From Candidatus Thiodiazotropha endolucinida (GTDB lineage Bacteria; Pseudomonadota; Gammaproteobacteria; Chromatiales; Chromatiaceae): a stretch of 64,000 bases of DNA. The notes beneath the pieces were generated by a model, which saw only the letters and a program-made list of their open reading frames with translations, did no database searches and was not told the origin of the DNA. The translations under genes and the position numbers were made by a program. The stretch lies in the NCBI RefSeq assembly GCF_001715975.1, contig NZ_MARB01000002.1, positions 62,001 through 126,000 on the forward strand, read 5' to 3'. Each line of letters opens with the position of its first letter. Positions within the stretch are counted from its first letter, which is position 1. Below, in pieces: positions 5,696-50,765 of the stretch.

Positions 5696-6997
5696 ATGCA
5701 GATTAAGAATATGTTGTTGATCAAGAATAAAACTCTGGTGGTGATAGTCATAGCACTGGGAATTACGCTGAGTGCCTGCGGCGGCGGCTCGAGCAGCGAT
5801 ACTTCGAGCACCAACAGTACTGAGCAGAACAACACTCAAGACCAGGCAGAGCAGGATACTCCGGCTGCCGGTGATGAAACCCCACCCGAGACAGAAGAGA
5901 CAGCACCACCTGATCCGGTGCAGACAAACCAACGGCCCACCGCTCGGGTGACTGCCTCACAACTGGCCACATCGGGTGAGACCGTGACTTTGGACGGTTC
6001 CGGCTCAAGCGATCCGGATGGAGATACCCTGAATTTTATCTGGCGTCAGACCCAGGGATCATCGATCGGCTTGGTGAACGTGGCAAGTCCAACCCTCAGC
6101 TTCATAGCTCCAAGCGTCGAACAGGCAACCACCTACAGTTTCCTGCTGCAGGTAAACGATGGCGAGCTCTCCGACAGTGCGGCGATATCCATCACCGTAA
6201 CGCCAATGGTGGACAGCACGCCACCCACCATCGTGGCAAGAGTACCACAACCAAGCGCCACCGATGTCTCAGTCACAACCAGTATCCGTGTGGATTTTGA
6301 CGAGCCACTGCTGGAATCCTTGATCAACAATCAAAGCCTGCAGCTAAGTGTCGATTCCTCCCCTGTTTCGGCAAGCGTCAGCTACGACGACCAAAACAAC
6401 CGCCTATCGCTGACCCCTGATGCGGCACTTACCGCGGCAACAACATACACTGTCACCCTTGCCGGTAACCTGCAGGACCTGGCCGGCAATCCTGTGGCGA
6501 GTGTCAATTGGAACTTCACTACGGGATCACAATATAACCTGGGAGAGACACCACAAAGCACCATCGATCTCTGTATGAGCACAAGCGATAAGGCTATGCT
6601 AAGCCTGATCAACGACGCCAGGGCCGTAGCAAGATCCTGCGGCACCACCAACTATCCGGCGGCGCCGTCGCTCGCCTGGCACTGCAGCCTCGAGCAGGCC
6701 GCTCAAGGCCACTCCACATCGATGGCCGACAACAACTTTTTCAGCCATACCGGTCTTGACGATTCAGATCCGGGAGACCGTATTACTGCTACTGGGTATA
6801 TCTGGCGCACATATGGCGAGAATATCGCGGCCGGTTACCCTGATGAGGAGAGCACCGTGTCCGCTTTGCTGGACAGCCCCGGTCATTGCGCCAATATCAT
6901 GAATCCCGGTTTTAGCGAAGTGGGTACCGCGGTTGCTGAAAACTCCGCATCCACCTACGTCATCTACTGGACGCAGAATTTTGCCGACAGATTCTAG
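5696..6997 (+). CDS. lipoprotein with PKD-like, Big_5-like and C-terminal CAP/SCP domains
   Basis: A 433-residue predicted lipoprotein. A hydrophobic N-terminus ends in the lipobox LSAC followed by GGGSSS, so it is probably anchored in the outer or inner membrane facing out of the cytoplasm. A Ser/Thr/Pro/Glu-rich linker leads to a PKD-like beta domain (DGSGSSDPDGD, residues ~85-170), a bacterial Ig-like Big_5 type domain (FDEPL, TYTVTL, LQDLAGNPV, ~175-280) and a CAP/SCP domain (~298-433) with HSTSMADNNFFSH, GENIAAG and SPGHCANIMNPGFSEVG, including the His/Glu residues typical of bacterial CAP proteins. Four Cys occur in the CAP part. Substrate unknown. No clear ribosome-binding site separates the ATG at 5696 from that at 5711, which also gives a good signal sequence. 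Confidence 0.85.
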   Translation: MQIKNMLLIKNKTLVVIVIALGITLSACGGGSSSDTSSTNSTEQNNTQDQAEQDTPAAGDETPPETEETAPPDPVQTNQRPTARVTASQLATSGETVTLDGSGSSDPDGDTLNFIWRQTQGSSIGLVNVASPTLSFIAPSVEQATTYSFLLQVNDGELSDSAAISITVTPMVDSTPPTIVARVPQPSATDVSVTTSIRVDFDEPLLESLINNQSLQLSVDSSPVSASVSYDDQNNRLSLTPDAALTAATTYTVTLAGNLQDLAGNPVASVNWNFTTGSQYNLGETPQSTIDLCMSTSDKAMLSLINDARAVARSCGTTNYPAAPSLAWHCSLEQAAQGHSTSMADNNFFSHTGLDDSDPGDRITATGYIWRTYGENIAAGYPDEESTVSALLDSPGHCANIMNPGFSEVGTAVAENSASTYVIYWTQNFADRF

Positions 6998-7237
6998 GGG
7001 CTGTTTAAAACAATCTGAAGATCAGACCGGTAAAAAACCTAATCGAACAGGCCGCGAATAGGCATAAATCACCACAAAATAACCGCTACTCTACCGTTCC
7101 ACGCTCCTGGGAGGGAATGCATATCCATAGGTGCTCATTCCCATTCTATTCTGCCACCCGTATGCGTCTCCGCCTTTTTGTCGATTGTCTGTCAGCTTAC
7201 TCTCTAACCGACACGACACGGGCCAGCGTCTGCGAAC

Positions 7238-7915
7238 TTATTCGACCTGAAGTGATTTGGCCCGTGCTTTTATCTGTTCCATGCGCGCAACTCCCTGTTC
7301 GAAAATCTCTCCGCTCGCATCGGGAATAGGTTGACTTACCGCCTGGGTGAGGAGGGCTTTCAGCTGGACCGGATCAAACAGGGTGACTGCGGCCTCGAAC
7401 TCGGCCTGATCGGCACTCAACAGGGCAGGCAGCAGCTCATCCTGGGCAATCGGTGATTCAGGATCCAGAAGGTCCGCCACCAGGGGGCTTTCAAGCAACT
7501 CATAATGTGCCCGGCGAGCTATCTCTTCTTGTTCCAACTCTTGATGCGCAAGGGAGTCATTCCCCGAACCCTTCCACACCGATCGCATGATCACTTCCAC
7601 CAGTTTTTTAATCGCCTCTTTGTTGGGCGTTTGATCATCAGCCAGGCGACATGCTGTTTCATAGGCCTGGTCGAGCCGTTCCTTCAATCCCAAAATGACA
7701 TCGCTCTGTTCATGTGGACCTAGCGCCACAGCCTCTCCGACCAGGCCGCGTAAATATCCGATATAGGCCACCAGCTCCTCATGATCGCGGCGCTGGGCCT
7801 CCCTCAATTGCGCTTGTGTCAGCTGGCGGGCCGCCTCAGGGAAAAGGGGATTCTCATGTTTTCGCAGCAGATGGCGTTCATGCCTTCCCGGGCGCTCACT
7901 AAACAACAAACTCAT
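7238..7915 (-). CDS. hypothetical acidic, helical protein
   Basis: A 225-residue protein I do not recognise. It has no signal peptide or membrane segment, is rich in Glu, Ala, Leu and Gln and looks mostly alpha-helical; the first ~30 residues are basic (ERPGRHERHLLRKHE). The ATG at 7915 is preferred to the TTG at 7930 because a weak ACAGAG lies upstream of it. It is transcribed alone, with no close neighbour on its strand. Codon usage looks like that of neighbouring genes, so it is probably a real cytoplasmic protein, but no function can be assigned. Confidence 0.6.
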   Translation of the reverse strand: MSLLFSERPGRHERHLLRKHENPLFPEAARQLTQAQLREAQRRDHEELVAYIGYLRGLVGEAVALGPHEQSDVILGLKERLDQAYETACRLADDQTPNKEAIKKLVEVIMRSVWKGSGNDSLAHQELEQEEIARRAHYELLESPLVADLLDPESPIAQDELLPALLSADQAEFEAAVTLFDPVQLKALLTQAVSQPIPDASGEIFEQGVARMEQIKARAKSLQVE

Positions 7916-8076
7916 ATTTAACTCTGTCAAAGAAGAGGTCTAGATAGGGAGTTTTACCATGAAAAGGCAGTCAATGGGCATATTCCTGACCTACGCGACG
8001 TTCACCATCGGAAAGTACCAGGAAAGGAGAAATAGTCCAAATTTTGCTCGTGAAGCGCCTATTAATAGCTAATTTA

Positions 8077-8090
8077 TTGATATTAATCAG
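8077..8090 (+). promoter_or_regulatory. FNR/Anr-type box upstream of micropeptide 1
   Basis: TTGATATTAATCAG matches the FNR consensus TTGATNNNNATCAA at 9 of the 10 specified bases. Its centre is 8083.5; a class II arrangement (centre at -41.5) would put the start of transcription near 8125 and the -10 element on TACCCT at 8113-8118. The downstream micropeptide starts at 8204. The site is seen; regulation is inferred. Confidence 0.5.
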
Positions 8091-8203
8091 TTGTTTCTGC
8101 GTCAAGAGCAATTACCCTACTCTGCGCAGTGTTAATGCTGCACAGCGTTTACATCGAGTTGCGTGAACTTTTATGGTCAGTGTCAAACTTGGAGGACATC
8201 ACC

Positions 8204-8284
8204 ATGTTAGGTAGTGAAAAGGCAATCGTTGGAGCAATAGCCATTTTGGTACTCGGAATTGTCGCCGCAGTACTGCTTGGCTGA
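8204..8284 (+). CDS. 26-residue membrane micropeptide, paralog 1
   Basis: ATG with a strong GGAGG ribosome-binding site eight bases upstream (8191-8195) encodes a 26-residue peptide beginning MLGSEKAI. Residues 7-26 form one hydrophobic helix rich in small residues (Gly10, Ala11, Gly18, Ala21, Ala22, Gly26), with a short Glu-Lys pair at the N-terminus. A second gene at 9106 encodes a peptide of the same length with 17 of 26 residues identical; eight of those 17 codons differ only synonymously, which is evidence that the protein sequence is under selection. It is probably an inner-membrane single-span peptide, perhaps a small subunit of a larger complex or a regulator. I recognise no known family. 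A GC-rich hairpin follows the stop. Confidence 0.7.
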   Translation: MLGSEKAIVGAIAILVLGIVAAVLLG

Positions 8285-8292
8285 ATGAAAAT

Positions 8293-8318
8293 GGGCGGTG
8301 GAGTAGCCTCTACCGCCC
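8293..8318. terminator. bidirectional hairpin between micropeptide 1 and hemerythrin
   Basis: Eleven-base arms GGGCGGTGGAG and CTCTACCGCCC with a TAGC loop, one wobble pair. It starts 9 bases after the micropeptide stop and 28 bases beyond the end of the convergent hemerythrin gene. No T run, so it may act as a transcript-end stabiliser or weak terminator for both. Confidence 0.5.
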
Positions 8319-8345
8319 TGGCCTCCGCAAATCAATCGATCGGTG

Positions 8346-8780
8346 TTACATGACCTGGCTGAGAAACTGTGCGGTAACCATGTCCATGCTCTTCACATGC
8401 TGGTCAAACCAGGCCCGCCATTCAACAAAGATATAGTCGGCAAGCTGCTGTAATCCCTGCTCCCTCAACCACTGATCCTGCACTGACTCGATTCGTGTTA
8501 GCACCTCAGCATGCTCCGCCTTATGTACAGGGTAGGGCGGAAAGGCATAGCTTTCCATCAATCTGTTTTCACCCTCGAAATGGGCACGAGTATGCTCCAC
8601 CCACTCAGCCAGCAGATGGCTGATCTGTTCAGGATCGAGAGCGCCATCAATGGCTTGCAACACCATCTCACCCAGCCGATTGATCAGGCCGACCTCCTCC
8701 ATGTGGACTTCGTTCATGGATGTCAGGGCCACACTTGGTAATTCAGTAATATCAACCACGGGCAAATGATATGGACTCAC
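8346..8780 (-). CDS. bacteriohemerythrin
   Basis: A 144-residue hemerythrin-like protein binding O2 (or NO) at a non-haem di-iron site in the cytoplasm. The usual ligand pattern is complete: His26 (NEVHMEEV), His67 and Glu71 (HFEGENRLM), His86 and His90 (YPVHKAEHAEVL), His128 and Asp133 (HVKSMD). It is a stand-alone single domain of typical length. The GTG start at 8780 is preceded by GAGAG at suitable spacing. An exact FNR box at 8844-8857 is placed for class II activation, implying expression at low oxygen, where single-domain hemerythrins are thought to deliver oxygen to oxidases or buffer it. It lies between two paralogous micropeptide genes. Confidence 0.93.
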   Translation of the reverse strand: MSPYHLPVVDITELPSVALTSMNEVHMEEVGLINRLGEMVLQAIDGALDPEQISHLLAEWVEHTRAHFEGENRLMESYAFPPYPVHKAEHAEVLTRIESVQDQWLREQGLQQLADYIFVEWRAWFDQHVKSMDMVTAQFLSQVM

Positions 8781-8843
8781 GATGGACTCTCGTAGCGGCT
8801 GTCGGAAACCGTGGCATGCTACTCGATTGACCTGTACAGACCT

Positions 8844-8857
8844 TTGATTTCGATCAA
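8844..8857 (-). promoter_or_regulatory. exact FNR/Anr box upstream of hemerythrin
   Basis: TTGATTTCGATCAA is a perfect TTGATNNNNATCAA dyad, centre 8850.5. On the minus strand a class II geometry gives a transcription start near 8809 and a -10 element exactly on TAGCAT (complement of 8816-8821), 29 bases before the hemerythrin GTG. Box and -10 are both seen in the sequence; activation by an FNR-family protein is inferred. Confidence 0.65.
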
Positions 8858-8973
8858 CACTCTGCCAGATAAGCCACGGGGATCGACCGATTGTTTGTCT
8901 GCAAGTGAACCATATTATTCAACAAATCATCGATATAGATATTACAAAGCTTAATGCCTTATAAATATTATGG

Positions 8974-9001
8974 TATTTGATTGCAAATATTGAAATTCAA
9001 T
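8974..9001. promoter_or_regulatory. two abutting inverted repeats upstream of micropeptide 2
   Basis: TATTTG-ATTG-CAAATA (8974-8989) is directly followed by ATTGAA-A-TTCAAT (8989-9001), both perfect dyads. A possible -10 (TATACA at 9018-9023 or TATAAC at 9024-9029) lies just downstream. The spacing TTG-N4/5-CAA does not fit FNR, so another regulator, or AT-rich chance structure, must be considered. Confidence 0.35.
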
Positions 9002-9105
9002 TTTTTCGCACCACGTGTATACATATAACCAGATCCAAGGGACTGGTTGTAAGGCAAGACATAACGACTCTTTATTTAAGGTGTTTGTTAAAGGAGGCTA
9101 CAACT

Positions 9106-9186
9106 ATGTTAGGCAGTGAAAAGGCCATTATCGGCGCAGTCGGTCTCATTCTGCTCGGTATTATTGCATCGGTACTCATCGGATAA
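9106..9186 (+). CDS. 26-residue membrane micropeptide, paralog 2
   Basis: The second copy of the MLGSEKAI peptide, again exactly 26 residues, with a strong AAGGAGG ribosome-binding site (9091-9096) before the ATG. The N-terminal eight residues are identical to those of the copy at 8204, and the hydrophobic helix differs mainly by Ile/Val/Leu exchanges while Gly10, Ala11, Gly18, Ala21 and Gly26 are kept. The stop codon differs (TAA against TGA). A possible GC-rich hairpin follows. Longer in-frame reading upstream to 8977 is open but lacks a ribosome-binding site and shares nothing with the other copy, so the short form is the gene. Function unknown; a membrane role is inferred. Confidence 0.7.
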   Translation: MLGSEKAIIGAVGLILLGIIASVLIG

Positions 9187-9193
9187 GCGGCAT

Positions 9194-9227
9194 CGCCCGG
9201 TGATGGGATTATCTCAGTCGCCGGGCG
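9194..9227 (+). terminator. candidate hairpin after micropeptide 2
   Basis: CGCCCGG (9194-9200) pairs with CCGGGCG (9221-9227); TGA/TCA inside can extend the fold. Begins eight bases after the micropeptide stop. No T run. Confidence 0.35.
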
Positions 9228-9276
9228 TATCTCCGACACCCGTCATGGAAACAGGCTGTCGTTGTAGAATCGACTG

Positions 9277-10164
9277 TTAACAACCGATGTCTGTTTCTGC
9301 ATCGAATCCCGGATTGATCGCTTCATAGAGGGATGAGTAGTCCTCATCCCCGTAACCTGCATTCTGACCGTTTATAAGAACCTTCAACGTGGCATTTGAA
9401 ATTTCACTGTTCATACCCGATGCCTCTGTCACCTGCTGAAACAGGGCGATATCCTTGATCAGGTGCTTCAAGGGAAAGTTAGGATTGCTGTAGTCGTGCT
9501 CCATGAATTTCTTCAGTTTCTTGTCGAAGGTGGGCGCATAGAGGGCACTCTGGCGCAATAACCCCATGAACTGTTCCACCTCCACACCCTCTGCGCGAAT
9601 CAGGCCGAGACTCTGTGAGAATCCTGCGGTAAGCGCGGCGATCAATTGGTTCATTGCCAATTTCACTGCAGCACCCTTACCTACAGGCCCAAGGTGCTCA
9701 ACCTCCTTTCCAAGCCCCCGCAGCATCAGCAGGGTCTGGTGGTATGCGCTCTCTGAACCTGCCGCCATGACAATCAGTTCACCGGATTTTGCTTCCGGAA
9801 TACTCCCCAATACGGGCACCTCGAGATAGTCTCCACCCGCCGTTTCCACACTTGCGCCGATGTCACGACTCTCATCGGGAGAGATGGTGCCCATCTGCAG
9901 TACCGACTTACCCTTTATCAACGGCTTCACCGAGCTGTCGAACAGCACATCTTTGATCGCTTCGGCATCACTGAGGGTCAGAATCAATACCTCTCCGGCA
10001 GTCACTGCTGCAGTGAGTGATGATTCCACGCTCAATCCTTCCTCTTTCGCGATCTTCAATCGTTCTTTCGAGCGGTTCCAGGCAATCACATCATGGCCAC
10101 AATGAACCAGTCTGTGGGCGATCGGAAGACCCATCAAGCCAAGCCCCAGCAGTGCTACTTTCAT
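9277..10164 (-). CDS. NAD(P)-dependent 3-hydroxyisobutyrate dehydrogenase-family oxidoreductase
   Basis: A 295-residue beta-hydroxyacid dehydrogenase of the MmsB/GarR/GLYR family. The N-terminal Rossmann motif GLGLMGLPIAHRL (residues 7-19) binds the dinucleotide; the conserved substrate-loop region (VLGSIPEAKSGELIVMAAG, ~118-136) and the catalytic-Lys segment GKGAAVKLAMNQL (~162-174) are present. Family members reduce small 2-hydroxy or semialdehyde substrates such as tartronate, glyoxylate or succinate semialdehyde; which one applies here is not deducible. GGGAAAG precedes the ATG. It ends the same strand run as hemE (17-base gap upstream), so the two may be co-transcribed, although no pathway link is evident. 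Confidence 0.9.
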   Translation of the reverse strand: MKVALLGLGLMGLPIAHRLVHCGHDVIAWNRSKERLKIAKEEGLSVESSLTAAVTAGEVLILTLSDAEAIKDVLFDSSVKPLIKGKSVLQMGTISPDESRDIGASVETAGGDYLEVPVLGSIPEAKSGELIVMAAGSESAYHQTLLMLRGLGKEVEHLGPVGKGAAVKLAMNQLIAALTAGFSQSLGLIRAEGVEVEQFMGLLRQSALYAPTFDKKLKKFMEHDYSNPNFPLKHLIKDIALFQQVTEASGMNSEISNATLKVLINGQNAGYGDEDYSSLYEAINPGFDAETDIGC

Positions 10165-10181
10165 CGTCTTTCCCTCACGGA

Positions 10182-11252
10182 TTACTCTTCAGCATGGTAG
10201 TCGCGGCTCAGATCATGCACCGCCTCCACAAACACGCCCGCATGTTCAGGGTCGATCTCGGGATGAATACCATGGCCAAGATTAAACACATGGCCGCTAC
10301 CCTTGCCGAAACTGGCCAACACCTGAGCCACCGCTTCCCTGATCCGTTGCGGCGATGCATATAAGGTACAGGGATCGAGATTACCCTGCAGGGCAACCCT
10401 ATCGCCTACACGACGCCTTGCATCGGCCAGGCTCAAGGTCCAGTCGATACCCAATGCGTCACATCCGCTGTCAGCCATCTGTTCCAGCCATAATCCACCG
10501 CCCTTGGTAAATAGGATAGCGGGTACCTTGCGGCCCTCCACCTCACGCTTCAATACCTGCAGTATCTGTCGCATGTAGGCAAGCGAGAAGGCCTCATAGT
10601 GCTGCGGCGTCAGCACACCACCCCAGGTATCGAAGATCATCACAGCCTGTGCGCCGGCATCAATTTGCGCGTTCAGATAGGCAGCGACTGCATCAGTGAT
10701 TTTACTCAACAGTCGGTGCATCAAATCCGGGCGGTCAAACATCATCCCTTTTACCTTTGAGAAATTCTTGGTGCCGCCACCCTCTACCATATAGGTCGCC
10801 AGGGTCCATGGGCTGCCACTGAACCCGATCAGCGGCACCCGCCCCTGCAATTCGCGGTGAATGGTACGGACGGCATCCATGACATAGCCCAGGTCATCCT
10901 CCATATCCGGCACTGCCAATCCTTCGATAGCGGCTTCATCCCGTACCGGCCGTTCGAAATGGGGGCCTTCGCCTTCGGTGAAATAGAGGCCAAGTCCCAT
11001 GGCATCAGGTACGGTAAGAATATCGGAAAAGAGAATGGCCGCATCCAACGGGTAGCGGTCCAAAGGTTGAATGGTGACTTCACAGGCCAGATCCGGGTTA
11101 CGGCACAGATCCATGAAACTTCCCGCCTTGCTGCGGGTGGCCCGGTACTCAGGTAGATACCGACCGGCCTGGCGCATCATCCAGACTGGGGTCACATCCA
11201 CTGGCTCACGGCAGAGCGCCCGCAAAAATCGGTCATTTTTCAATCTAGCCAC
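10182..11252 (-). CDS. hemE: uroporphyrinogen III decarboxylase
   Basis: Removes the four acetate carboxyls of uroporphyrinogen III to give coproporphyrinogen III in cytoplasmic haem synthesis. At 356 residues it has the usual length. Family signatures are clear: [16 protein letters not shown] near the N-terminus, [14 protein letters not shown], and [16 protein letters not shown] in the middle. The GTG at 11252 ([13 protein letters not shown]) is chosen over more upstream starts: it has GAAGGA seven bases before it, and homologs start at this point with L-x-N-D-R-x-L-R-A-L. The following dehydrogenase starts 17 bases after the stop. Confidence 0.95.
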
Positions 11253-11421
11253 AGAGATATCCTTCGAAACGGTTACGCTATAAACAGCAGCCGATTGTAC
11301 ACGCAAAACAGTGCCCGTAGACACTCGATGTTTAATACGCAGAATCACCAACTCACCATTTTAGCCATTATCCGTGTATGGGATACTATCTGCGTAAAAG
11401 CAATGCTGTAATGAGAAATCT

Positions 11422-12390
11422 ATGACACCCGTAAAACAGATCATCCTTGCCAAGAAGGACGCCCTTGCCTCGACTGTGGCTGAGCCGTTATCGCTGCTGG
11501 CCAGGCACTGTATTCCTGTCTGGGATGATATCGACGCACTGGACCGGGTGCTGCTCGAACACATCGATCAGATCACCAACTGTGAATTTCTCTATGCCTG
11601 GGACCTGGAGGGACAAGAGATATCATCACTGATTCTGCCAGGCCAGGCGGACAAAAGCTGGCGGGGGAGGGACCTCTCCAAACGCCCTTATTTGAAAAAC
11701 AATCTGCCGTTCAAGGGCATCATGCTCTCTTCGGTCTACCACAGCCAATTCTCTGACAGGGAGTGTGTCACCGCGCTTCAGGCCGTCAGGAGGGATGAGG
11801 CGCTGCTGGGTTTCATTGCCGCCGATTTCTCCCTCGACAAACTGGTTGCCGATGAAGGCCTCATCAAGGAACCACAACATTGGCAGCAATTCAAAGGCGA
11901 TCCCGCGGTGCGCGGCACCCTGTTCATGCAGCAGAGGATCCAGAGCCGGCTGGATGAAAATATCGATTCGGTTCATGCGACCATCTATGACCTGATGACA
12001 CAACATGGGATTTTTCACTGTAAGATCCACTACTCCAGCGGCCGTTGCTCATTCTGGGTGCTTAACGATCCGTATACCTACCAGGTGCATGGTGTTGACG
12101 AGATCGTCGACCCGGATATCGTACTGGCCTACCCTCTCCACCGCTATCCGGAAAGGGCTAAAGTATCACCACATCAGATACGCGAGGTATTCAGTGAGTT
12201 CAAGGCACTGCGTTTTGCCGACGAAACCATCTATCTACGCAGCGCCTCAATCAATATCATGAATGGCATGTTGGGCCTCACCTTCTCCTGCGACGGTTCG
12301 CACTACATGCCCGTGGAGGAGTTTATCGAGAAGAATCTGGGATTCTGGATCGGCGAACTTGCCTCGGACCGACAAACAGCGAGGGACTAG
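11422..12390 (+). CDS. PDC sensor domain-containing protein
   Basis: A 322-residue protein whose segment from about residue 40 to 150 looks like a PDC/Cache-type sensor fold, with the typical WxGRDLSKRPYLKN and FSDRECVTALQAVRR...LLGFIAADFSLDKL elements. Unlike chemoreceptors it has no signal sequence, transmembrane segment or output domain such as GGDEF or a kinase, so it seems to be a soluble cytoplasmic ligand-binding protein. The C-terminal half (FHCKIHYSSGRCSFWVLNDPY) is not recognised. It converges on the ODP-type di-iron protein and shares a palindromic end with it. Ligand and partner are unknown. Confidence 0.75.
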   Translation: MTPVKQIILAKKDALASTVAEPLSLLARHCIPVWDDIDALDRVLLEHIDQITNCEFLYAWDLEGQEISSLILPGQADKSWRGRDLSKRPYLKNNLPFKGIMLSSVYHSQFSDRECVTALQAVRRDEALLGFIAADFSLDKLVADEGLIKEPQHWQQFKGDPAVRGTLFMQQRIQSRLDENIDSVHATIYDLMTQHGIFHCKIHYSSGRCSFWVLNDPYTYQVHGVDEIVDPDIVLAYPLHRYPERAKVSPHQIREVFSEFKALRFADETIYLRSASINIMNGMLGLTFSCDGSHYMPVEEFIEKNLGFWIGELASDRQTARD

Positions 12391-12410
12391 GGCCTGTTAA
12401 CAGGCCCTAG
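12387..12410. terminator. perfect 24-base palindromic hairpin containing both convergent stop codons
   Basis: Ten-base arms CTAGGGCCTG and CAGGCCCTAG around TTAA. The TAG stop of the plus-strand gene (12388-12390) and the TAG stop of the minus-strand gene (12407-12409, complement) each lie in an arm, so both mRNAs would end in the same hairpin. No T run; bidirectional terminator or 3'-end stabiliser is inferred. Confidence 0.6.
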
Positions 12411-13165
12411 GGCAAGCGATAGTTGTTTTGCGTCATCAGGTCGACACCGCACTCAAGGCCATCTATCCAATTGATGAACTCATTGACAACCTTTTTACCC
12501 AGAAACGCCCGGCCATGTTGCGGTACTATCATGTCGATATCGAGTTGACGAACCATGTTCGCCCACAGGTTGCACACCTTGTTCGAGTTCATATAGCGTC
12601 TGTGGAAGCCTTCCATGTAAGGCATGATCTCCGATAGCTTCTTCACCGGGGCATTCAGATCACCCGGGGGAAGATTGGCGCCGAGATCACCCGAAAAAAG
12701 GATACGGCTGACCGGATCATAAAACTGAAAATTACCCTCTGCATGGAGAAAATGCGCAGGCAGGGCCATCAAGCGTATATTGCCCAGTTCCAGGTTGATC
12801 CCCTCATCGGGAATCGGCACAACCCGATCCTGTAACCGGCCGGGACGGGTAAAGTGGGGTATGAAACGTTCCCACAATGCGGGAACCACCACCTTACAGT
12901 CGGTGCCCACCAGCCATTTATTCACCGATGCGACGATATCCGGATCCTGATGCGACGCGATGACATAGTCCAGTCTCTTGACATTCATGTAGTCACTGAT
13001 GGCCATGAACAGGCGGGAATAGGTCAATTCACCGCCTGGATCGATCAATGCCGCGTGTTGATGATCATAGATCAGAAACTGATTCGCCTGGACGGCTTCA
13101 CCCGATACCAGATCTCTGAATGCCACACAGATGTGACTACCATTATTAAATAACTCAACTGACAT
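12407..13165 (-). CDS. ODP-type metallo-beta-lactamase-fold di-iron protein
   Basis: A 252-residue metallo-beta-lactamase-fold protein of the flavodiiron/ODP branch, without the flavodoxin domain of true flavodiiron proteins. Ligand segments are visible: SHQDPDIVAS (~90-99; the second His of the classical HxExDH motif is Ile, as in ODP-like proteins), AHFLHAEGNF (~155), SGDLGANLPPG (~175) and VPQHGRAF (~227). Proteins of this branch bind O2 at a di-iron centre and act as oxygen sensors or reductases; in two-component contexts they serve as sensor domains. Here it stands alone, convergent with a PDC sensor protein, so a stand-alone oxygen-binding or signalling role is inferred. Confidence 0.85.
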   Translation of the reverse strand: MSVELFNNGSHICVAFRDLVSGEAVQANQFLIYDHQHAALIDPGGELTYSRLFMAISDYMNVKRLDYVIASHQDPDIVASVNKWLVGTDCKVVVPALWERFIPHFTRPGRLQDRVVPIPDEGINLELGNIRLMALPAHFLHAEGNFQFYDPVSRILFSGDLGANLPPGDLNAPVKKLSEIMPYMEGFHRRYMNSNKVCNLWANMVRQLDIDMIVPQHGRAFLGKKVVNEFINWIDGLECGVDLMTQNNYRLP

Positions 13166-13342
13166 AATCTTTGCTACATCTAAATATCATGTGTCCAAAA
13201 GATCGGCTGGCGATGAATTCAATGGCCAATATGGGACAATTATCGACAGAACTCGGAAAAGCTTAACTGGATCATAGTATATTTCAAGAAAAATCAGCCG
13301 ACTATTGTAAAACTACTCTATAAACCAATGGTGGAATCCGAG

Positions 13343-13993
13343 ATGTTATCCCATGGTTGGAACCTCTCACCAACTGAAGCGGTTGCCCTGCAGAATAGCT
13401 TGAGGCGGCAGGTCGTCGGCCGAAACTGTTACGCTGAACTGCAGCGCATTGCCGGTGTGGATGTGGGATTCGAGGCACATGGCAGTATCACACGTGCCGC
13501 AATTGTTGTCTTGAGTTATCCCCAACTGCAGCCCCTGGAACAGGCGATCGCCAGGCTACCCACCTCTTTCCCCTATATTCCAGGCCTGCTCTCTTTCCGG
13601 GAAGTACCCGCCATTCTGCAAGCGCTATCCAAACTCCAGCAACCTCCCGATATTTTTCTCTGCGATGGACAGGGTATAGCACATCCAAGACGTTTCGGGC
13701 TTGCATGCCATCTCGGAGTGTATACCGACATACCCAGCGTGGGCGTCGCCAAAACCCGTTTGATCGGAAGCCATGCCACTGTCCCTGCGGAGAAGGGGGG
13801 ATGGGTTCCACTGATCGACAAGGATGAGACGATAGGTGCCGTTTTACGTACGCGTAGCGGCGTGAAACCTCTCTATATATCCATCGGACACAAGATCTCC
13901 CTGGAGCGCTCGATCGAGCTGGTGCTGGCTTGTACACCCCGTTATAAATTACCTGAAACAACCCGCGCCGCCCATCGCTTGGCATCTGGTTGA
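13343..13993 (+). CDS. nfi: endonuclease V
   Basis: Cleaves the second phosphodiester bond 3' of deoxyinosine and other deaminated bases in DNA, beginning alternative excision repair. At 216 residues it has the usual length. Catalytic acids are in place: Asp in AGVDVGF (~38), Glu in [12 protein letters not shown] (~85), Asp in [19 protein letters not shown] (~104), and the C-terminal [18 protein letters not shown]. The ATG at 13343 is preferred to 13328 because GGTGGA sits seven bases before it. The 3' end overlaps the convergent histidine phosphatase gene by 52 bases. Confidence 0.94.
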
Positions 13994-14535
13994 TAGCAGC
14001 CGAACTCCCAATAATCCCTTCCGGGTTTTCTAGGTCCACACCAACCCTTTTTCAACAAAGCGCCTGCAATAAAATAGTTGAAAAGGCCGTGACCAACCAG
14101 GACTACATGGTTTTCACCTGTTGCCAGCTCCATCAACTTCTCTGCCGCCTGTTCCGCCCGATATTGCGCTTTCGACAGCGCTTCTCCGTTCGCGGCAAAA
14201 CCCAGTAACCATAACAGCCTCAATAGACCAACCCAGATCCCAACGGGCAGTGCTATCGATCCGGTGTCAAAGTGCGGAATCATGGTTTCTGCAAACAGCG
14301 GATCCGAGAGATGTATATCACTGATACCAAGCTCACTAACCGACTCCAGGGAGCGCTTAAGGTGGCTGCAAACGACAATATCATGCCCTGCTATTGCATC
14401 GATTGTCGTTGTGGGTGGGGTGTCCATGATGCCTGATGCGTCATATCGTTCGGCAATCGATGGCAACTCATCGGCTCTGACACGGCCGCTCAGCTGATAT
14501 TCGGGTCTACCGTGTCTGATTAACGTAATTTGCAT
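13942..14535 (-). CDS. histidine phosphatase (phosphoglycerate mutase-like) family protein
   Basis: A 197-residue cytoplasmic member of histidine phosphatase branch 1. The N-terminal LIRHGRPEY carries the phospho-accepting His8; [11 protein letters not shown] supplies the conserved Arg-containing loop, and [15 protein letters not shown] (~150) supplies the second catalytic His. Family members act on phosphoglycerate, cobalamin precursors, phosphoproteins or SixA-like targets; nothing here defines the substrate, and no cobalamin genes are nearby. Its last 52 bases are antisense to the end of nfi, an arrangement that would constrain both C-termini. Confidence 0.85.
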
Positions 14536-14692
14536 GGCAATAGATTGTGTGAAGCCTCAACAAAACGGCCAATTCGCCGCAACGATCTCAATAGTCGAAC
14601 AGAATCAGGTTCATCAAGATGAATCCCATCGACTTTACTGCTTTCTGTCACCTTGCCCGCATTGAATGAGTTTCGAAGCCTATATTCGAATA

Positions 14693-15094
14693 TCAATCCG
14701 AATTGCGTATATGTTCGATATAGCGCGGACGATCATCCATCACCAATCTGACGCCCCCGGCCCAGGCCTGGAGCCGCTCATCACTCTTATCAAACTTCAG
14801 ATCGCAGCGGGCCCGGCCCTGACTGTTGAGAGGGATCGGGACCATATCCCTGTAGGTATAGACATTCTCACCCACATCACCGCCTTCACAGATACAGGGA
14901 CACACAGGTATATCTGTTTCGAGCTCTGCGCCTTCATACACCAAGGCACCCGCCTGCCACCATCGGGTCCGTTCATCTGAACCACTCATGGTTTTAATGA
15001 TAATGGCGCGTGAAAACCGTATCGTAAGGGTGCCGTTTTCAAATACGATTGATTCGACTTCACTGCCAGGCAGCTCGACTGAACTGGAATCCAT
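14693..15094 (-). CDS. hypothetical beta-rich protein
   Basis: A 133-residue protein I do not recognise. It has no signal peptide or membrane segment. Visible features are a WWQAG motif (~46-50), a CPCICEGGDVG cysteine cluster (~64-74) that could bind a metal, and a C-terminal GGVRLVMDDRPRYIEHI stretch. Alternating hydrophobic residues suggest a small beta-sheet fold. It lies alone upstream of the histidine phosphatase gene on the same strand, with ~157 bases between them, so co-transcription is possible but unsupported. Confidence 0.6.
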   Translation of the reverse strand: MDSSSVELPGSEVESIVFENGTLTIRFSRAIIIKTMSGSDERTRWWQAGALVYEGAELETDIPVCPCICEGGDVGENVYTYRDMVPIPLNSQGRARCDLKFDKSDERLQAWAGGVRLVMDDRPRYIEHIRNSD

Positions 15095-15261
15095 AACTGT
15101 TTACCCAGGGACTGTTAACACTCATCCGATCGGCAGCCACCGATTTGAATCAATCGCCGCCTGAATCAGGCTTGAATCATAACGTCATGCGCACGCCAAG
15201 CAAACATATCGATAGCGGGTTAATAGTAAGGGAGGGAAACCAAGGCTGAGACATTTAAGAC

Positions 15262-16671
15262 TCAAGACCCCTCCAAACCAAGCTCCTTGATTTTTCGGGT
15301 CAAGGTGTTGCGCCCCCAGCCAAGCAAGCGGGCCGCGTCCTGCCGTCTGCCGGCGGTGTGCTCCAGGGCTATTTCGATCATTGCCGATTCGAAATCCGGT
15401 TCTGCCTCATTGAGTATGCCTTCACCACCTTCCTGAAGCCTTTTTCTCGCCCAATCGCGCAATTGTTGTCGCCAGTCCTCGGGGTAGGCGGATTGCGTGT
15501 CACTGCGCTCTTTCAATTCGCTCGGCAGATCATCAACGTGTATCTCTTGCCCGGAGGCCATTACCGTCAACCAGCGAGCCGTATTTTCCAATTGGCGAAC
15601 ATTGCCCCGCCACTCCAACTGGCTCAGGTAGGCTTCTGTCTCCGGCAACAACAACTTCGTCTCAACCGCAAGCTCTTCTGCGGCGCTTTTGAGAAAATGT
15701 TTCATCAACAACGGAATATCCTCCCGCCGTTGACGCAATGAGGGAATATGAATACGTATGACATTCAAGCGGTGGAACAGATCTTCCCTGAAGGAACCCA
15801 GTTTTACCAATCCTTCCAGATGCTGATGAGTGGCGGCAATGATACGTACATCCACCTTGACCGGCTCATGACCACCAACCCGATAGAATTCACCGTCGGC
15901 TAACACTCTAAGCAATCGCGTCTGCAATTCCGCCGGCATGTCCCCGATCTCATCCAGGAACAGGGTACCGCAATCGGCCTGTTCAAAACGTCCGGTACGG
16001 CGTGTCTGCGCGCCGGTAAAGGCCCCGCGCTCATGACCGAACAACTCCGATTCCATCAGGTCCTTCGGTATTGCGGCCATGTTCAATGCGATGAACGGAC
16101 CAGTGGAACGAGTGCTGTGACGGTGCAAGGCATGGGCCACCAGCTCCTTTCCGGTACCGGACTCACCATTGATCAATACGGTAATGTTCGATCTCGCCAG
16201 GCGTCCGATGGCACGGAATACTTCCTGCATCGCCGGTGCTTCACCGATAATCACCTTCTCCTGATCAAGATTGTCCTGAGTTGGTTTCTCATCCTCCGAG
16301 ATTTGCTGGCGGCATGCCCGTCTGATCTGTTGTACGGCCTCATCCACATCAAAGGGTTTGGGCAGATACTCGAAAGCACCGCCATGGTAGGCGGATACAG
16401 CACTCTCGAGATCAGAATGGGCGGTCATGATGATCACCGGCATATCCGGATAACGCGTATGAAGCAACTCCAGCAGTTCCAATCCATCCATTCCCGGCAT
16501 GCGGATATCCGAGACCACAACATCCGGCTGTTCTTTATCCAGATAGTTCATCACCCCGTCCGCACTCTCGAAACAGGTGACATCCATATCCGCTTTTTCC
16601 AGGGTCTTCTGCAACACCCAGCGAATCGAGCGATCGTCATCGATGACCCATACCCGGCATGATCTATCCAT
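15262..16671 (-). CDS. ntrC: nitrogen regulation response regulator NtrC
   Basis: Sigma-54-dependent transcription activator of nitrogen assimilation genes, phosphorylated by NtrB. Domains in order over 469 residues: receiver with acidic pocket DDD at 11-13 and phospho-acceptor Asp55 ([10 protein letters not shown]); AAA+ domain with Walker A GESGTGKE (~168), the sigma-54 contact loop GAFTGA (~215) and Walker [11 protein letters not shown]-terminal Fis-type helix-turn-helix ([24 protein letters not shown]). The ATG overlaps the end of ntrB by eight bases, indicating translational coupling. NtrC-type dyads lie upstream of ntrB and of glnA, so autoregulation is likely. Confidence 0.97.
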
Positions 16672-17740
16672 CTACCTGCTCCAGTGGAAGTAATACTCTA
16701 AAAACCGTATGTCCCGGCTTACTGGTGAACTCGATCAAACCCTGATGCCTGTTGATCAGGGTTTGGGAGATTGAGAGACCCAAACCCATGCCGTCGCTAC
16801 CCGATACCAATGGAAAAAAGACTCGCTCCTGAAGCTCAGCCGGAATACCCGGTCCGTTATCCGAGATCTCGATCGACACCACAAGGCGATGGCGTATATT
16901 GCCGATTGTGAATTGACGAAGGATTCTGCTGTTTATCCCCATGGTCCCCCTGGGCCCAGCAGCTCGAACGCCATTTCTCAATATATTGAGAAATGCCTGG
17001 ATCAATTGATCCATATCCCCCTTTAAATCGGGAATGCTCGGATCGTAGTCTTTGATGATCTCCAGCCCCGGACCGGTCTCCACCCGCACCAGACTGCAGA
17101 CCCGTTCAAGCACCTGATGAATGTTGACTCGCTTCATCACCGGAATCTTGTTCGGTCCCAACATCCTGTCCACCAGATTCTGCAGCCGGTCGGCCTCTTC
17201 TATGATGATCTGGGTATATTCCGCCAGGGCGGCATCGGGAAGCTCTCTCTCCAGCAGCTGTGCCGCGCCCCTGAGTCCGCCCAGGGGATTCTTGATCTCA
17301 TGGGCAAGGCCTCTCACCAATGCCCGACTGGCCTGGTTACGTGCCAGTAACTGTTCCTCCCGCGAAATTCTCAGCTGCCTGTCGACCTGCTGAATCTCGA
17401 CCAGAAATTCATTGACATACTGATCCAACCTTATAGGTATCACAGTGCAATCGACCATGATCTCTTTGTCTTCATGAACAATTATCTGATGTTCCCGCTC
17501 AGTGAATGGCTGGCCGGTCTGCAATGACCTTTCAAGGTTTTCGTGCACCACATTTCCGGAGCAGCTGACCAGTTCGCCGGCGGGAATGCCGATCACCTTA
17601 CGGGCACTGACACCAAACATCATCTCAGCTGAAGAGTTGATATATTGCAGTCTGAACTCCCTATCAAACAGCAGAATGGCGGTACTCAGATTATCGAGTA
17701 CCCGTTTCTCCATGCCTGTGATTGCCTGATCGGTAGTCAT
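16664..17740 (-). CDS. ntrB: nitrogen regulation sensor histidine kinase NtrB
   Basis: Soluble histidine kinase/phosphatase that sets NtrC phosphorylation in response to PII protein. Over 358 residues: an N-terminal PAS domain (~15-120), the HisKA motif LAHEIKNPLGGLRGAAQLLER with phospho-accepting His147, and a GHKL ATPase domain with N box (LNILRNGVRAA), DNGPGIPAE and a glycine-rich GLGLSISQTLI box. No membrane segment is present, as expected. It is translationally coupled to ntrC and preceded, at 17959-17975, by a perfect NtrC-type dyad. Confidence 0.96.
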   Translation of the reverse strand: MTTDQAITGMEKRVLDNLSTAILLFDREFRLQYINSSAEMMFGVSARKVIGIPAGELVSCSGNVVHENLERSLQTGQPFTEREHQIIVHEDKEIMVDCTVIPIRLDQYVNEFLVEIQQVDRQLRISREEQLLARNQASRALVRGLAHEIKNPLGGLRGAAQLLERELPDAALAEYTQIIIEEADRLQNLVDRMLGPNKIPVMKRVNIHQVLERVCSLVRVETGPGLEIIKDYDPSIPDLKGDMDQLIQAFLNILRNGVRAAGPRGTMGINSRILRQFTIGNIRHRLVVSIEISDNGPGIPAELQERVFFPLVSGSDGMGLGLSISQTLINRHQGLIEFTSKPGHTVFRVLLPLEQVDG

Positions 17741-17958
17741 GGCCTAATTTGAGCAATTTGCGGGCCAACACTTCCGAACCTAAGCATAATCTTGTCCCAT
17801 CGATGGTGACTGTCCGCTTGACCTGTTAAATGATTGATTAAGAAGGCAGAAATTCTGGTTAGGGTCACAGTCTGGATACCAGATCACAATGTTGCATGGC
17901 GATGCGCCATCGAGTACGACGGCAACTCAATACAACCAGAATTAACAAATCCAACTTA

Positions 17959-17975
17959 TGCACCATTATAGTGCA
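17959..17975 (-). promoter_or_regulatory. NtrC-binding dyad upstream of ntrB
   Basis: TGCACCATTATAGTGCA has perfect TGCAC/GTGCA arms at the spacing of NtrC sites (TGCAC-N7-GTGCA). It is 219 bases upstream of the ntrB ATG in a 369-base gap that otherwise shows no gene. Its ATTATAGTGCA half is identical to the site upstream of glnA at 20427. Binding is inferred. Confidence 0.65.
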
Positions 17976-18109
17976 CAGCTGGCCGGCAGGCTTGCCCCTG
18001 CATGTGATTTGAGCGTTTCACAGACGCCTGGGCCCAGGGCCTGTTGACACCAATCCAATCGACCCAGCCATTAAGCAGGCCAAATTATTGATAATTGACC
18101 GAGAGGGTC

Positions 18110-18610
18110 TTAATTAACCGCCGGCTGGCGCAGGTGAAAGGTGATGCTATTGGACTCTTTGAGGGACTCCCCTTCACTCGTGACGATCTTTGCCTGCAAA
18201 GAGTGGGTGCCACGACTCAATTGCTGAAGGATGAGTTGAGTCTGCTTGATATCCGAATCGAGTTTGGTGCCATCCACATAGAGGTGAATCACATGGCCTT
18301 CGGCAAGATCGGGCGAGAGGGTGATGCCTACCGGAACCGAACCGTCTTCATTGCGAATGGTTTCATCATCATTCGGCTGGTCGATTGTAAAGGTGGCATA
18401 TTCACCCGCCGCCGCACGGGCCTCATCACTCTGATCATCCGGTGACAGCACGGCTGACTTCTTGCTGTCGGTGACCTTAATGCGTTCCGCATCCGGATGA
18501 TAGCGTTCGGAATAGATCACCTCGCCGTCTTCGGAGATGTATTTGTAGACATCCCTGGCGAACAGGGGCAATGCCATCAACAGAATCATTAACAGTACGA
18601 CAATACGCAT
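18110..18610 (-). CDS. DUF4124 domain-containing exported protein
   Basis: A 166-residue protein with an N-terminal signal peptide (MRIVVLLMILLMALPLFARD) and, directly after it, a DUF4124 domain (VYKYISEDGEVIYSERYHPDAERI), so it is probably periplasmic. The remainder, ~85-165, resembles a beta-sandwich with GHVIHLYVDGTKL and LSRGTHSLQAKI. Function is unknown; genes of this type are frequently found between glnA and ntrB in gammaproteobacteria (from memory of gene neighbourhoods), and here it sits exactly there. The ATG at 18610 is preferred to TTG 18616. Confidence 0.8.
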   Translation of the reverse strand: MRIVVLLMILLMALPLFARDVYKYISEDGEVIYSERYHPDAERIKVTDSKKSAVLSPDDQSDEARAAAGEYATFTIDQPNDDETIRNEDGSVPVGITLSPDLAEGHVIHLYVDGTKLDSDIKQTQLILQQLSRGTHSLQAKIVTSEGESLKESNSITFHLRQPAVN

Positions 18611-18668
18611 GCACAAAGAATAGACCAGTCATACCCAACTAAACAAGCGACTATGTTCGCATAACCAC

Positions 18669-18697
18669 AAAAAAGCGCCCCATAAGGGGCGCTTTTT
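18669..18697. terminator. bidirectional Rho-independent terminator after glnA
   Basis: GCGCCCC (18675-18681) and GGGGCGC (18686-18692) form a seven-pair stem with ATAA loop, flanked by six A and five T, giving a U run in either direction. It ends glnA transcription (stop at 18726) before the DUF4124 gene. Confidence 0.9.
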
Positions 18698-18725
18698 ACA
18701 AAATATCAAAACAAATCGAGACGCT

Positions 18726-20132
18726 TTACAGACTGAAGTACATATCGAACTCAGCGGGATGCGTCGTCATTCGCATGGTAGTGACCTCTTCCATTTTCAG
18801 GTCGATATAGCCGTCGATCAGGTCGTCGGTGAATACACCACCCGCCGTGAGAAAGTCACGATCCGCATCCAGTGCCTCAAGTGCCTGATCGAAGCTGTGA
18901 CAGACTGTCGGGATGCTGGCGGCCTCTTCAGCCGGCAGGTCGTACAGATCCTTATCCATGGCGTCGCCGGGATGGATCTTGTTCTGGATACCGTCGATGC
19001 CGGCCATCAGCATGGCGGAGAAGGCCAGGTAGGGGTTGGCGGTCGGATCGGGGAAACGCACCTCGATGCGACGGGCCTTGGGGCTGGAGACCCATGGAAT
19101 ACGGATGGAGGCGGAGCGGTTCCGGGCGGAGTAGGCCAGCATGACCGGGGCCTCGAAGCCGGGCACCAGGCGCTTGTAGGAGTTGGTGGAAGCGTTGGTG
19201 AAGGCATTCAGGGCACGGGCGTGCTTGATGATACCGCCGATGTAGTAGAGCGCGGTTTCTGAGAGACCGCCGTACTGGTCGCCGGCGAAGATGTTCTCGC
19301 CTCCCTTGGCCAGGGACTGATGCACATGCATACCGGAACCGTTGTCGCCCACCAGCGGCTTGGGCATGAAGGTGGCGGTCTTGCCGTATGCATGAGCCAC
19401 ATTCCAGGTGCAGTACTTCTGGATCTGCACCCAGTCGGCACGTGTCACCAAGGTATTGAACTTGGTGCCTATCTCACACTGGCCGGCGGTGGCCACTTCA
19501 TGGTGATGCACCTCGGTTTCCACACCCATCTCCTCCATGGCCAGACACATGGCCCCGCGCAGGTCATGCAGGGAGTCGACCGGGGGGACCGGGAAGTAGC
19601 CGCCCTTTACACCGGGACGGTGACCGATGTTACCGTCTTCGTAAACACGCTCGGAGTTCCAGTCAGCCTCTTCGGAGTCGATTTTGACCATCGAGCCGCT
19701 CATGTCGATACTCCAGCGCACATCATCGAGGACGAAGAACTCGGGCTCAGGGCCGAAGAAGGCCGCGTCGGCGATTCCGGTGGAGGCGAGATAGGCCTCG
19801 GCACGCTTGGCCAAGGAGCGGGGATCACGCTCGTAACCCTGCATGGTGGAGGGTTCCAGGATATCGCAGCGGATGATCAGGGTGTTTTCGTCGGCGAAGG
19901 GGTCGATGACCGAACTATCGTCTTCGGGCATCAGGATCATGTCCGATTCGTTGATGCCTTTCCAACCGGCGATGGATGAGCCGTCGAACATCTTGCCGTC
20001 GGTGAAAAAGTCCTCATCGACCTGGGTGGTGGGCAGTGTGACGTGCTGCTCCTTACCGCGAGTGTCGGTGAAACGCAGATCGATGAATTTCACGTCATTG
20101 TCTTTGATCATCTTCAGGGCTTTTACGGCCAT
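18726..20132 (-). CDS. glnA: glutamine synthetase type I
   Basis: Makes glutamine from glutamate, ammonia and ATP; a cytoplasmic dodecamer. At 468 residues it matches the adenylylated GSI-beta subclass. Seen: [11 protein letters not shown] near the N-terminus, [28 protein letters not shown], the ATP-binding region [11 protein letters not shown], and [12 protein letters not shown]. Tyr397 in LYDLPAEE is the adenylylation site, so activity is expected to be modulated by GlnE. A sigma-54 promoter and two upstream NtrC-type dyads precede it, and a strong terminator follows. Confidence 0.98.

Positions 20133-49240: not shown

Positions 49241-50765
<1,525 letters not shown>

What the first reader, a model, noticed from the sequence alone, without database searches (positions are those of the whole stretch)
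8204..9186. Two paralogous 26-residue membrane micropeptides flanking a hemerythrin gene
Seen: both peptides are 26 residues, begin MLGSEKAI, have strong ribosome-binding sites and a GC-rich hairpin after them; 17 of 26 residues are identical and eight of those codons differ only synonymously, which argues for selection on the peptide. Nothing in the family knowledge I have describes this peptide. Inference: a small subunit or modulator of a membrane complex, possibly induced at low oxygen together with hemerythrin. Alternatives: type I toxin (but no antitoxin RNA was visible) or a chaperone-like membrane peptide.
Basis: partly seen in the sequence, partly recalled or inferred. Interest (0 to 1): 0.78.

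Follow-up and report, generated by a model that had tools for sequence, protein, structure and literature searches.

The report
Conserved membrane micropeptides in clam symbionts
Two tiny 26-residue, probably membrane-spanning proteins really are encoded beside a hemerythrin gene in clam-symbiont bacteria; selection preserves them, one is probably switched on when oxygen falls, and what they do is unknown.

Summary
Both 26-codon ORFs are at 8204-8284 and 9106-9186, with GGAGG sites, 17/26 identical residues and hairpins after the stops. The genus is Candidatus Thiodiazotropha (lucinid-clam symbionts). pep1 is intact in 18 of 22 held genus genomes at the same place, pep2 in 10; two other genera of the family have a relative, one of them weakly supported. 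dN/dS is 0.19 (pep1) and 0.30 (pep2). A pattern scan of a collection of 84,980 species found such short ORFs only in this bacterial family. Pfam, NCBIfam and PDB gave no significant match.

New here: pep1 and the hemerythrin each have an FNR-type box (TTGAY-N4-RTCA), in 18/18 intact pep1 loci and 17/17 hemerythrin loci; pep2 has none of its own. Hemerythrin is a neighbour, not an obligate partner: three genomes keep both peptides with other genes in its place, and two keep hemerythrin with a broken pep1.

Best explanation: a low-oxygen-induced single-span protein that docks on and tunes a larger membrane complex, as CydH/YnhF or CcoM do. Canonical cytochrome bd is excluded as the general partner; cbb3 oxidase is allowed, not shown. 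Function is inferred.

The parts
8204..8284 (+). pep1 ORF, 26 aa MLGSEKAIVGAIAILVLGIVAAVLLG, stop TGA
   Evidence: homologues; dN/dS
8191..8195 (+). pep1 Shine-Dalgarno GGAGG
   Evidence: GGAGG in 17 of 18 intact loci (G001 has GAAGG)
8077..8090 (+). FNR-type box TTGATATTAATCAG of the pep1 promoter (127 nt before ATG)
   Evidence: 18 of 18 intact pep1 loci, 121-152 nt before ATG; one of three distinct sites in the 64-kb window
8113..8118 (+). putative -10 TACCCT, 22 nt after the box (class II spacing, recalled); tentative
   Evidence: 16 of 18 loci TACCCT, 1 TACCTT, 1 TGCTCT; only third-best offset by TATAAT score
8126..8141 (+). conserved palindrome-like element near the predicted transcript start (GCAATGTTATTGC in several relatives); role unknown
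8293..8318 (.). GC hairpin (11 bp stem, 4-nt loop) between pep1 and hemerythrin 3' ends, possible terminator
   Evidence: uninterrupted stems of 10 or more pairs in 12 of 18 intact pep1 loci; the strict terminator scan found none here
8346..8780 (-). hemerythrin HHE-domain protein, 144 aa
   Evidence: PF01814 E 9e-11
8844..8857 (-). FNR-type box TTGATCGAAATCAA of the hemerythrin promoter (77 nt before GTG)
   Evidence: 17 of 17 hemerythrin loci
8816..8821 (-). putative hemerythrin -10 TAGCAT, 22 nt after the box
   Evidence: TA(G/T)NNT at this offset in 17 of 17; mean 4.33 of 6 matches to TATAAT against 1.43 averaged over offsets
9093..9097 (+). pep2 Shine-Dalgarno GGAGG
9106..9186 (+). pep2 ORF, 26 aa MLGSEKAIIGAVGLILLGIIASVLIG, stop TAA
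   Evidence: found intact in 10 of 22 genus genomes; dN/dS 0.30
9194..9227 (.). GC hairpin after pep2
   Evidence: z -4.05; uninterrupted stems of 9 or more pairs in 6 of 10 pep2 loci
7238..7930 (-). conserved uncharacterised 230-aa protein, divergent from pep1; left border of the cassette
   Evidence: no Pfam match; matched in 40 of 75 genomes searched
9277..10164 (-). 3-hydroxyisobutyrate-dehydrogenase-like protein, convergent with pep2; right border of the cassette
   Evidence: PF03446/PF14833; next to the 7238-7930 homologue in G040 and G044

Best explanation
The two ORFs are paralogous genes for a 26-residue single-span membrane protein that was present at the base of Candidatus Thiodiazotropha. 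Shown by sequence: it is coding, under purifying selection, not in an operon with its neighbours here, and pep1 and the neighbouring hemerythrin each carry a conserved FNR-type box at promoter distance. Inferred: when oxygen falls (or NO appears) an FNR-type regulator activates pep1, made as a short mRNA. The peptide inserts with its short acidic/polar end in the cytoplasm, and its helix packs, through small residues (A7, G10, A/S11, G18, S/A/T22), onto a larger inner-membrane complex of low-oxygen metabolism whose activity or assembly it tunes. It would thus work like the unlinked oxidase subunit CydH/YnhF or the cbb3 subunit CcoM. pep2 would be a second isoform under other control. The partner is not identified; cbb3 oxidase is the best single candidate.
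For: Coding and selection: dN/dS 0.19 (pep1, 15 distinct sequences) and 0.30 (pep2, 9); pN/pS 0.27 and 0.43 against random-placement means 0.98 and 0.99; variable columns by codon position 13/6/20 and 17/3/22. Orthology and synteny in the genus. Short-ORF matches only in this bacterial family in the pattern scan. A genus-only profile finds the G075 relative at 26 bits. FNR boxes at 18/18 intact pep1 and 17/17 hemerythrin loci with the same 22-nt spacing to a conserved hexamer. G011, whose start is CTG, has also lost the box. The genome has two Crp/Fnr proteins with a C-x2-C-x5-C motif, one next to ccoN with the same box between them. The box occurs 336 times against 57 for the reversed control genome-wide, some sites counted on both strands. 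Residues 8-26 have mean Kyte-Doolittle 2.67-3.01 in 22 distinct peptides. Precedents: YnhF/CydY, about 3 kDa, is a low-oxygen, operon-unlinked bd subunit (PMC6853902, passages); CcoM is a 36-aa cbb3 subunit for oxygen limitation (PMC10433244, abstract).
Against: No partner is shown. cbb3 CcoN is also present in genomes without an intact peptide (G014, G017, G040), so co-occurrence does not point to it. Four of 22 genus genomes have no intact pep1, so it is dispensable. The small-residue face is not significant by permutation (p 0.135). The pep1 -10 is only third-best among offsets. pep2 has no own FNR box. The G050 and G075 relatives lack the box and the neighbourhood. No transcript or peptide evidence was found.
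Confidence: 0.45

Rival explanations
1. A stress peptide that acts on the lipid bilayer or the proton-motive force itself, without a fixed protein partner, like E. coli YohP; it would slow metabolism when oxygen runs out.
For: Nearly the whole molecule is one hydrophobic stretch. FNR-type box. YohP, 27 aa, lowers membrane potential and fluidity (PMC12719787, abstract). In G005, G013 and G018 a desaturase-like gene lies between the peptides (Pfam tested on G005 only).
Against: Specific positions are invariant (A7, G10, G18) rather than hydrophobicity alone being kept, which suggests protein contacts; homology to YohP was not tested.
Confidence: 0.22
2. Membrane anchor or docking peptide of the neighbouring hemerythrin, so that oxygen is delivered to a membrane oxidase.
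For: Adjacency in 17 of 20 loci read and shared FNR-type boxes. G017 lacks both at the locus. A hemerythrin gene is among the top-100 transcripts in gills (PMC13137333 Table 1).
Against: Three genomes keep the peptides without hemerythrin at the locus; G010 and G011 keep hemerythrin with a broken pep1. The own genome has 16 hemerythrin-domain matches, so another could serve and the transcriptome gene may be another one.
Confidence: 0.1
3. Type I toxin: a membrane-damaging peptide held in check by an antisense RNA.
For: Two paralogues close together, short hydrophobic helix, lineage-restricted, dispensable; FNR-dependent or unusual antisense promoters would escape the scan.
Against: No credible Rfam match; the only sigma-70-like site in 7900-9350 is on the plus strand, below the chance number; net charge 0 to -2; strong Shine-Dalgarno with no significant structure over it; conserved respiratory-type box.
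Confidence: 0.06
4. A regulatory RNA whose small ORF is secondary, or a dual-function mRNA.
For: Conserved elements around the predicted transcript start, a possible hairpin around the ribosome-binding site, strong 3' hairpins.
Against: Selection acts on codons. The RBS hairpin beats shuffles in none of 14 distinct sequences tested (lowest p 0.07).
Confidence: 0.05

Closest known systems
CydH/CydY (YnhF), E. coli cytochrome bd small subunit
   Same: Tiny single-span protein of about 3 kDa, own gene away from its complex, made at low oxygen (PMC6853902, passages)
   Different: Canonical CydA not found in 16 of 18 genomes with intact pep1; homology not tested directly (no PDB chain matched the profile); partner unknown here
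CcoM, 36-aa subunit of cbb3 oxidase in Pseudomonas stutzeri
   Same: Small protein of oxygen-limited growth (PMC10433244, abstract); cbb3 CcoN matched in all 22 genus genomes (21 over the cut-off)
   Different: Shorter here; homology not tested directly (no PDB chain matched the profile); association not shown
YohP, 27-aa E. coli stress membrane protein
   Same: Size, stress-linked membrane protein (PMC12719787, abstract)
   Different: Here an FNR-type promoter and invariant glycines/alanine; homology not tested
Type I toxins (Ibs, ShoB, TisB, Ldr; names recalled)
   Same: Length, hydrophobic, neighbouring paralogues
   Different: No antitoxin RNA seen, net charge 0 to -2, conserved low-oxygen-type box

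Membership tests
Small single-span membrane protein (a kind, not a homology family) | real short coding gene with start, ribosome-binding site and selection on the protein | tested here: met
Small single-span membrane protein (a kind, not a homology family) | located in the membrane | not testable with these tools
   only hydrophobicity computed: residues 8-26 mean 2.67-3.01
FNR-regulated gene | FNR-type box at promoter distance, conserved in orthologues | tested here: met
   pep1 18/18 intact loci, hemerythrin 17/17; not met for pep2 nor for the G050 and G075 relatives
FNR-regulated gene | an FNR-type protein with cysteine motif in the genome | tested here: met
   two of nine Crp/Fnr-type proteins over the cut-off
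FNR-regulated gene | oxygen-dependent expression | not testable with these tools
   no expression data for the peptide found
Cytochrome bd small subunit (CydX/CydH) | co-occurs with CydA | tested here: not met
   canonical CydA in 2 of 18 genomes with intact pep1 (G012; G021 in two pieces); five others have only a partial match in a frame of about 640 aa and one a sub-cut-off fragment
cbb3 oxidase accessory subunit (CcoM-like) | co-occurs with CcoN | tested here: inconclusive
   CcoN matched in 25 of 26 genomes, with or without the peptide
cbb3 oxidase accessory subunit (CcoM-like) | physical association with the oxidase | not testable with these tools
Type I toxin-antitoxin | antisense RNA antitoxin | tested here: inconclusive
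   no credible Rfam match and no minus-strand promoter-like site; an unknown RNA is not excluded
Type I toxin-antitoxin | toxicity on over-expression | not testable with these tools
   needs a bench test
Inovirus coat protein B (PF05356) | significant profile match | tested here: not met
   best E 0.032, 2 of 17 members; no phage match for pep1

The most novel reading that the evidence does not exclude
A new, lineage-specific accessory subunit of the high-affinity cbb3 oxidase (or another low-oxygen respiratory complex), encoded away from its complex, switched on by FNR together with a hemerythrin, and kept as two isoforms under different control in animal symbionts.
Probability: 0.15. Interest if true: 0.68.

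Novelty: new member of a known kind. Interest (0 to 1): 0.45.

Why it matters
Genes this short are often left out of annotation, and the published table of top-transcribed genes of a Thiodiazotropha symbiont leaves hypothetical proteins out (PMC13137333). Here a 26-residue protein is preserved across most of a genus of animal symbionts, with a promoter that predicts when it is made. That makes a concrete test possible: which membrane complex of a low-oxygen symbiont carries an unannotated small subunit.

Tried and rejected
Known-family searches: Pfam gave nothing for either peptide, and NCBIfam only a Psb35 hit at E 0.84, far below its cut-off. Scanned per member, the 17 rows of A1 gave only weak PHROGs and Pfam hits, best E 0.013 and 0.032. 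PDB: 0 matches at E 10. Phages and plasmids: no match for pep1. Rfam: only SNORD35 at E 0.86. Class sample of 369 genomes: the own genome plus two fragments inside long frames.

RBS-sequestering hairpin: looked conserved by eye but was not better than dinucleotide shuffles in any of 14 distinct sequences (13 intact, plus G011; p 0.07 to 0.98); dropped as a claim. The hairpin after the G075 relative is no better than shuffles (z 1.44) and that after G050 is weak (z -1.78).

Cytochrome bd partner: rejected by absence of canonical CydA. cbb3 partner: allowed, not discriminated. Small-residue helix face: visible, not significant. pep2 control by its own FNR box: not found. Diverged copies upstream of the 7238-7930 homologue in ten other genera: none found by a simple hydrophobicity filter.

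Expression evidence: the highly transcribed hemerythrin of PMC13137333 cannot be tied to this gene, because the own genome has 16 hemerythrin-domain matches.

One search shows that box, Shine-Dalgarno and ATG are all there, and that a repeat-ended element interrupts the ORF right after the first codons.

Full report
What is there. Both ORFs exist as described: pep1 8204-8284(+) and pep2 9106-9186(+), 26 codons each, with GGAGG 8 nt before the start. Identity is 17 of 26, and eight of the identical residues use different codons (read). The own genome (4.49 Mb, 55 contigs) gave just these two copies at E 10 with the pep1 sequence. The gene order is uncharacterised protein (7238-7930, -), pep1 (+), hemerythrin (8346-8780, -), pep2 (+), HIBADH-like (9277-10164, -), hemE (-). 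Each peptide is therefore convergent with its downstream neighbour. Hairpins follow both stops (z -3.93 and -4.05). An uninterrupted stem of 10 or more pairs lies there in 12 of 18 intact pep1 loci, and one of 9 or more in 6 of 10 pep2 loci; several of the others show bulged stems in the whole-leader folds.

Where it occurs. A search of 142 genomes found matches over all or nearly all of the peptide in 20 of 22 genus members, and weak ones in four other genomes of the family. Two of those four (G050, G075) are full-length short ORFs with a Shine-Dalgarno. With a 17-row profile, which includes those two, the 210 genomes of the family gave the same strong set; the other listed matches at E 5 were partial and mostly inside longer frames, the list being cut (the order search, covers the same number of genomes). 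A genus-only profile still finds the G075 peptide (26.0 bits, E 2.5e-6 among 8,514 short-ORF entries, nested starts included) and finds the G050 one weakly (16.1 bits, E 0.003; the best unrelated ORF scored 14.2). A degenerate DNA pattern built from the members, those two included, was scanned over genome contigs (84,980 species): 28 stretches matched, 15 of them holding 26-27-residue ORFs (19 ORFs in all) and 13 lying in frames of 49 codons or more. The pattern is not fully sensitive; it misses some pep2 copies, such as those of G005, G013 and G018. In the class sample of 369 genomes there was nothing convincing beyond the own genome.

Selection. In the 18 intact pep1 genes (15 distinct) dN/dS is 0.19, and in the 10 pep2 genes (9 distinct) 0.30. 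Variable columns fall 13/6/20 and 17/3/22 over codon positions 1/2/3. Random placement of the same differences gives pN/pS near 1, never below 0.81 in 60 runs each, against 0.27 and 0.43 observed. A7, G10 and G18 are invariant in 22 distinct peptides (G050 left out), and position 11 is A in 21 of 22.

History. In two related genera (G040, G044) the HIBADH-like gene and the 7238-7930 homologue are adjacent or nearly so, with neither peptide nor hemerythrin found between them. In a tree of three flanking proteins rooted on these two, without support values shown and without G014, pep1 and pep2 each occur on both sides of the deepest split in the genus. pep2 has G at residue 13 in 8 of 10 genomes, pep1 has A there in 17 of 18. 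The duplication is thus probably as old as the genus (inference). Four of 22 have no intact pep1. In G010, box, Shine-Dalgarno and ATG are all present, but an element of about 260 bp with matching inverted ends interrupts the ORF right after its first codons. G011 has CTG in place of ATG and no box in the 420 nt before it. G017 has only what look like end remnants. In G014 nothing was found; it is a 2.6-Mb genome and the contig is short, so assembly could contribute. In G005, G013 and G018 a desaturase-like gene and a 104-aa protein stand between the peptides instead of hemerythrin; the Pfam test, PF00487, was run on G005 only.

Control. An FNR-type box TTGAY-N4-RTCA lies 121-152 nt before the ATG in 18 of 18 intact pep1 loci, and 75-79 nt before the start in 17 of 17 hemerythrin genes. 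The window has three distinct sites in 64 kb, about the number expected by chance; two of them are these, so the evidence is their conserved position, not their number. At 22 nt after the box, hemerythrin has TA(G/T)NNT in 17 of 17 (4.33 of 6 matches to TATAAT, mean over offsets 1.43). Pep1 has TACCCT in 16 of 18 at the same offset, but two other offsets score slightly better against TATAAT, so its -10 is tentative. The genome carries nine Crp/Fnr-type regulators above cut-off, two with an FNR-like cysteine motif; one of these adjoins ccoN with a box between. Genome-wide the box matches 336 times over both strands, some sites twice, against 57 for the reversed control. Other Crp/Fnr proteins, such as NO-responsive ones, read similar boxes (recalled), so oxygen against NO is open. 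Pep2 has no such box of its own, nor have the G050 and G075 relatives.

How it may work. The peptide is almost one hydrophobic stretch after a short polar start. A separate, FNR-boxed gene for such a peptide resembles YnhF/CydY, which sits outside the cyd operon and is made at low oxygen (PMC6853902, passages read), and CcoM of cbb3 oxidase (PMC10433244, abstract). Canonical CydA was not found in 16 of 18 genomes with intact pep1, so bd is not the general partner. CcoN matched in all 22 genus genomes, but also in genomes without an intact peptide. I therefore favour an accessory subunit or modulator of a low-oxygen membrane complex, with cbb3 the best single candidate, and keep a YohP-like bilayer-acting stress peptide as first rival (PMC12719787, abstract). 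A fixed partnership with hemerythrin is unlikely, since each is kept without the other, although G017 lacks both at the locus.

Literature. In PMC13137333 (passages and part 1 of 2 of section 24 read) a hemerythrin gene is among the top-100 transcripts of Ca. T. endolucinida (median TPM 6,189 to 19,497), but that table leaves out hypothetical proteins, and the own genome here has 16 hemerythrin-domain matches, so identity with this gene is not shown. Searches for the string MLGSEKAI and for 'small protein' with Thiodiazotropha in the held library found no paper. Passages of PMC11742914 and PMC5069765 were also seen and carry no part of the argument.

Verdict. A real, new, lineage-restricted small-protein family; new member of a known kind (low-oxygen single-span micropeptides); partner and function unproved.

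Noticed in passing
window 7930-9277; L112, L113, L049, L046: The junction between the HIBADH-like gene and the 7238-7930 homologue is variable: empty in two related genera, and holding hemerythrin, a desaturase-like gene plus a 104-aa protein, or hemerythrin plus extra DNA (in G002 a hybrid histidine kinase) in different Thiodiazotropha clades.
   Followed up: partly
L049:6802-7992: The desaturase-like protein also matches a transposase model (PF01610) over its C-terminal residues 288-389.
   Followed up: no
window 8126-8141: A conserved near-palindrome (GCAATGTTATTGC in several relatives) sits at the predicted pep1 transcript start; second operator or 5' hairpin unknown.
   Followed up: no
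L054 about 6870-7130: An element of about 260 bp with matching inverted ends interrupts pep1 right after its first codons in G010, leaving box, Shine-Dalgarno and ATG in place.
   Followed up: partly
window 7238-7930: Conserved 230-aa family without a Pfam match, matched in 40 of 75 genomes searched.
   Followed up: no
own genome: 16 hemerythrin-domain matches in one 4.5-Mb symbiont genome.
   Followed up: no
own genome C1:231607-232371 and relatives: Frames of about 640 aa matching only positions 2-251 of the CydA model in several genus members and G040, possibly a distinct bd-like protein.
   Followed up: no
window 49505-49517: Third FNR-type site of the window; its gene was not examined.
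   Followed up: no
window 12407-13165: ODP-family metallo-beta-lactamase-fold protein (PF19583) near the heme biosynthesis gene hemE.
   Followed up: no
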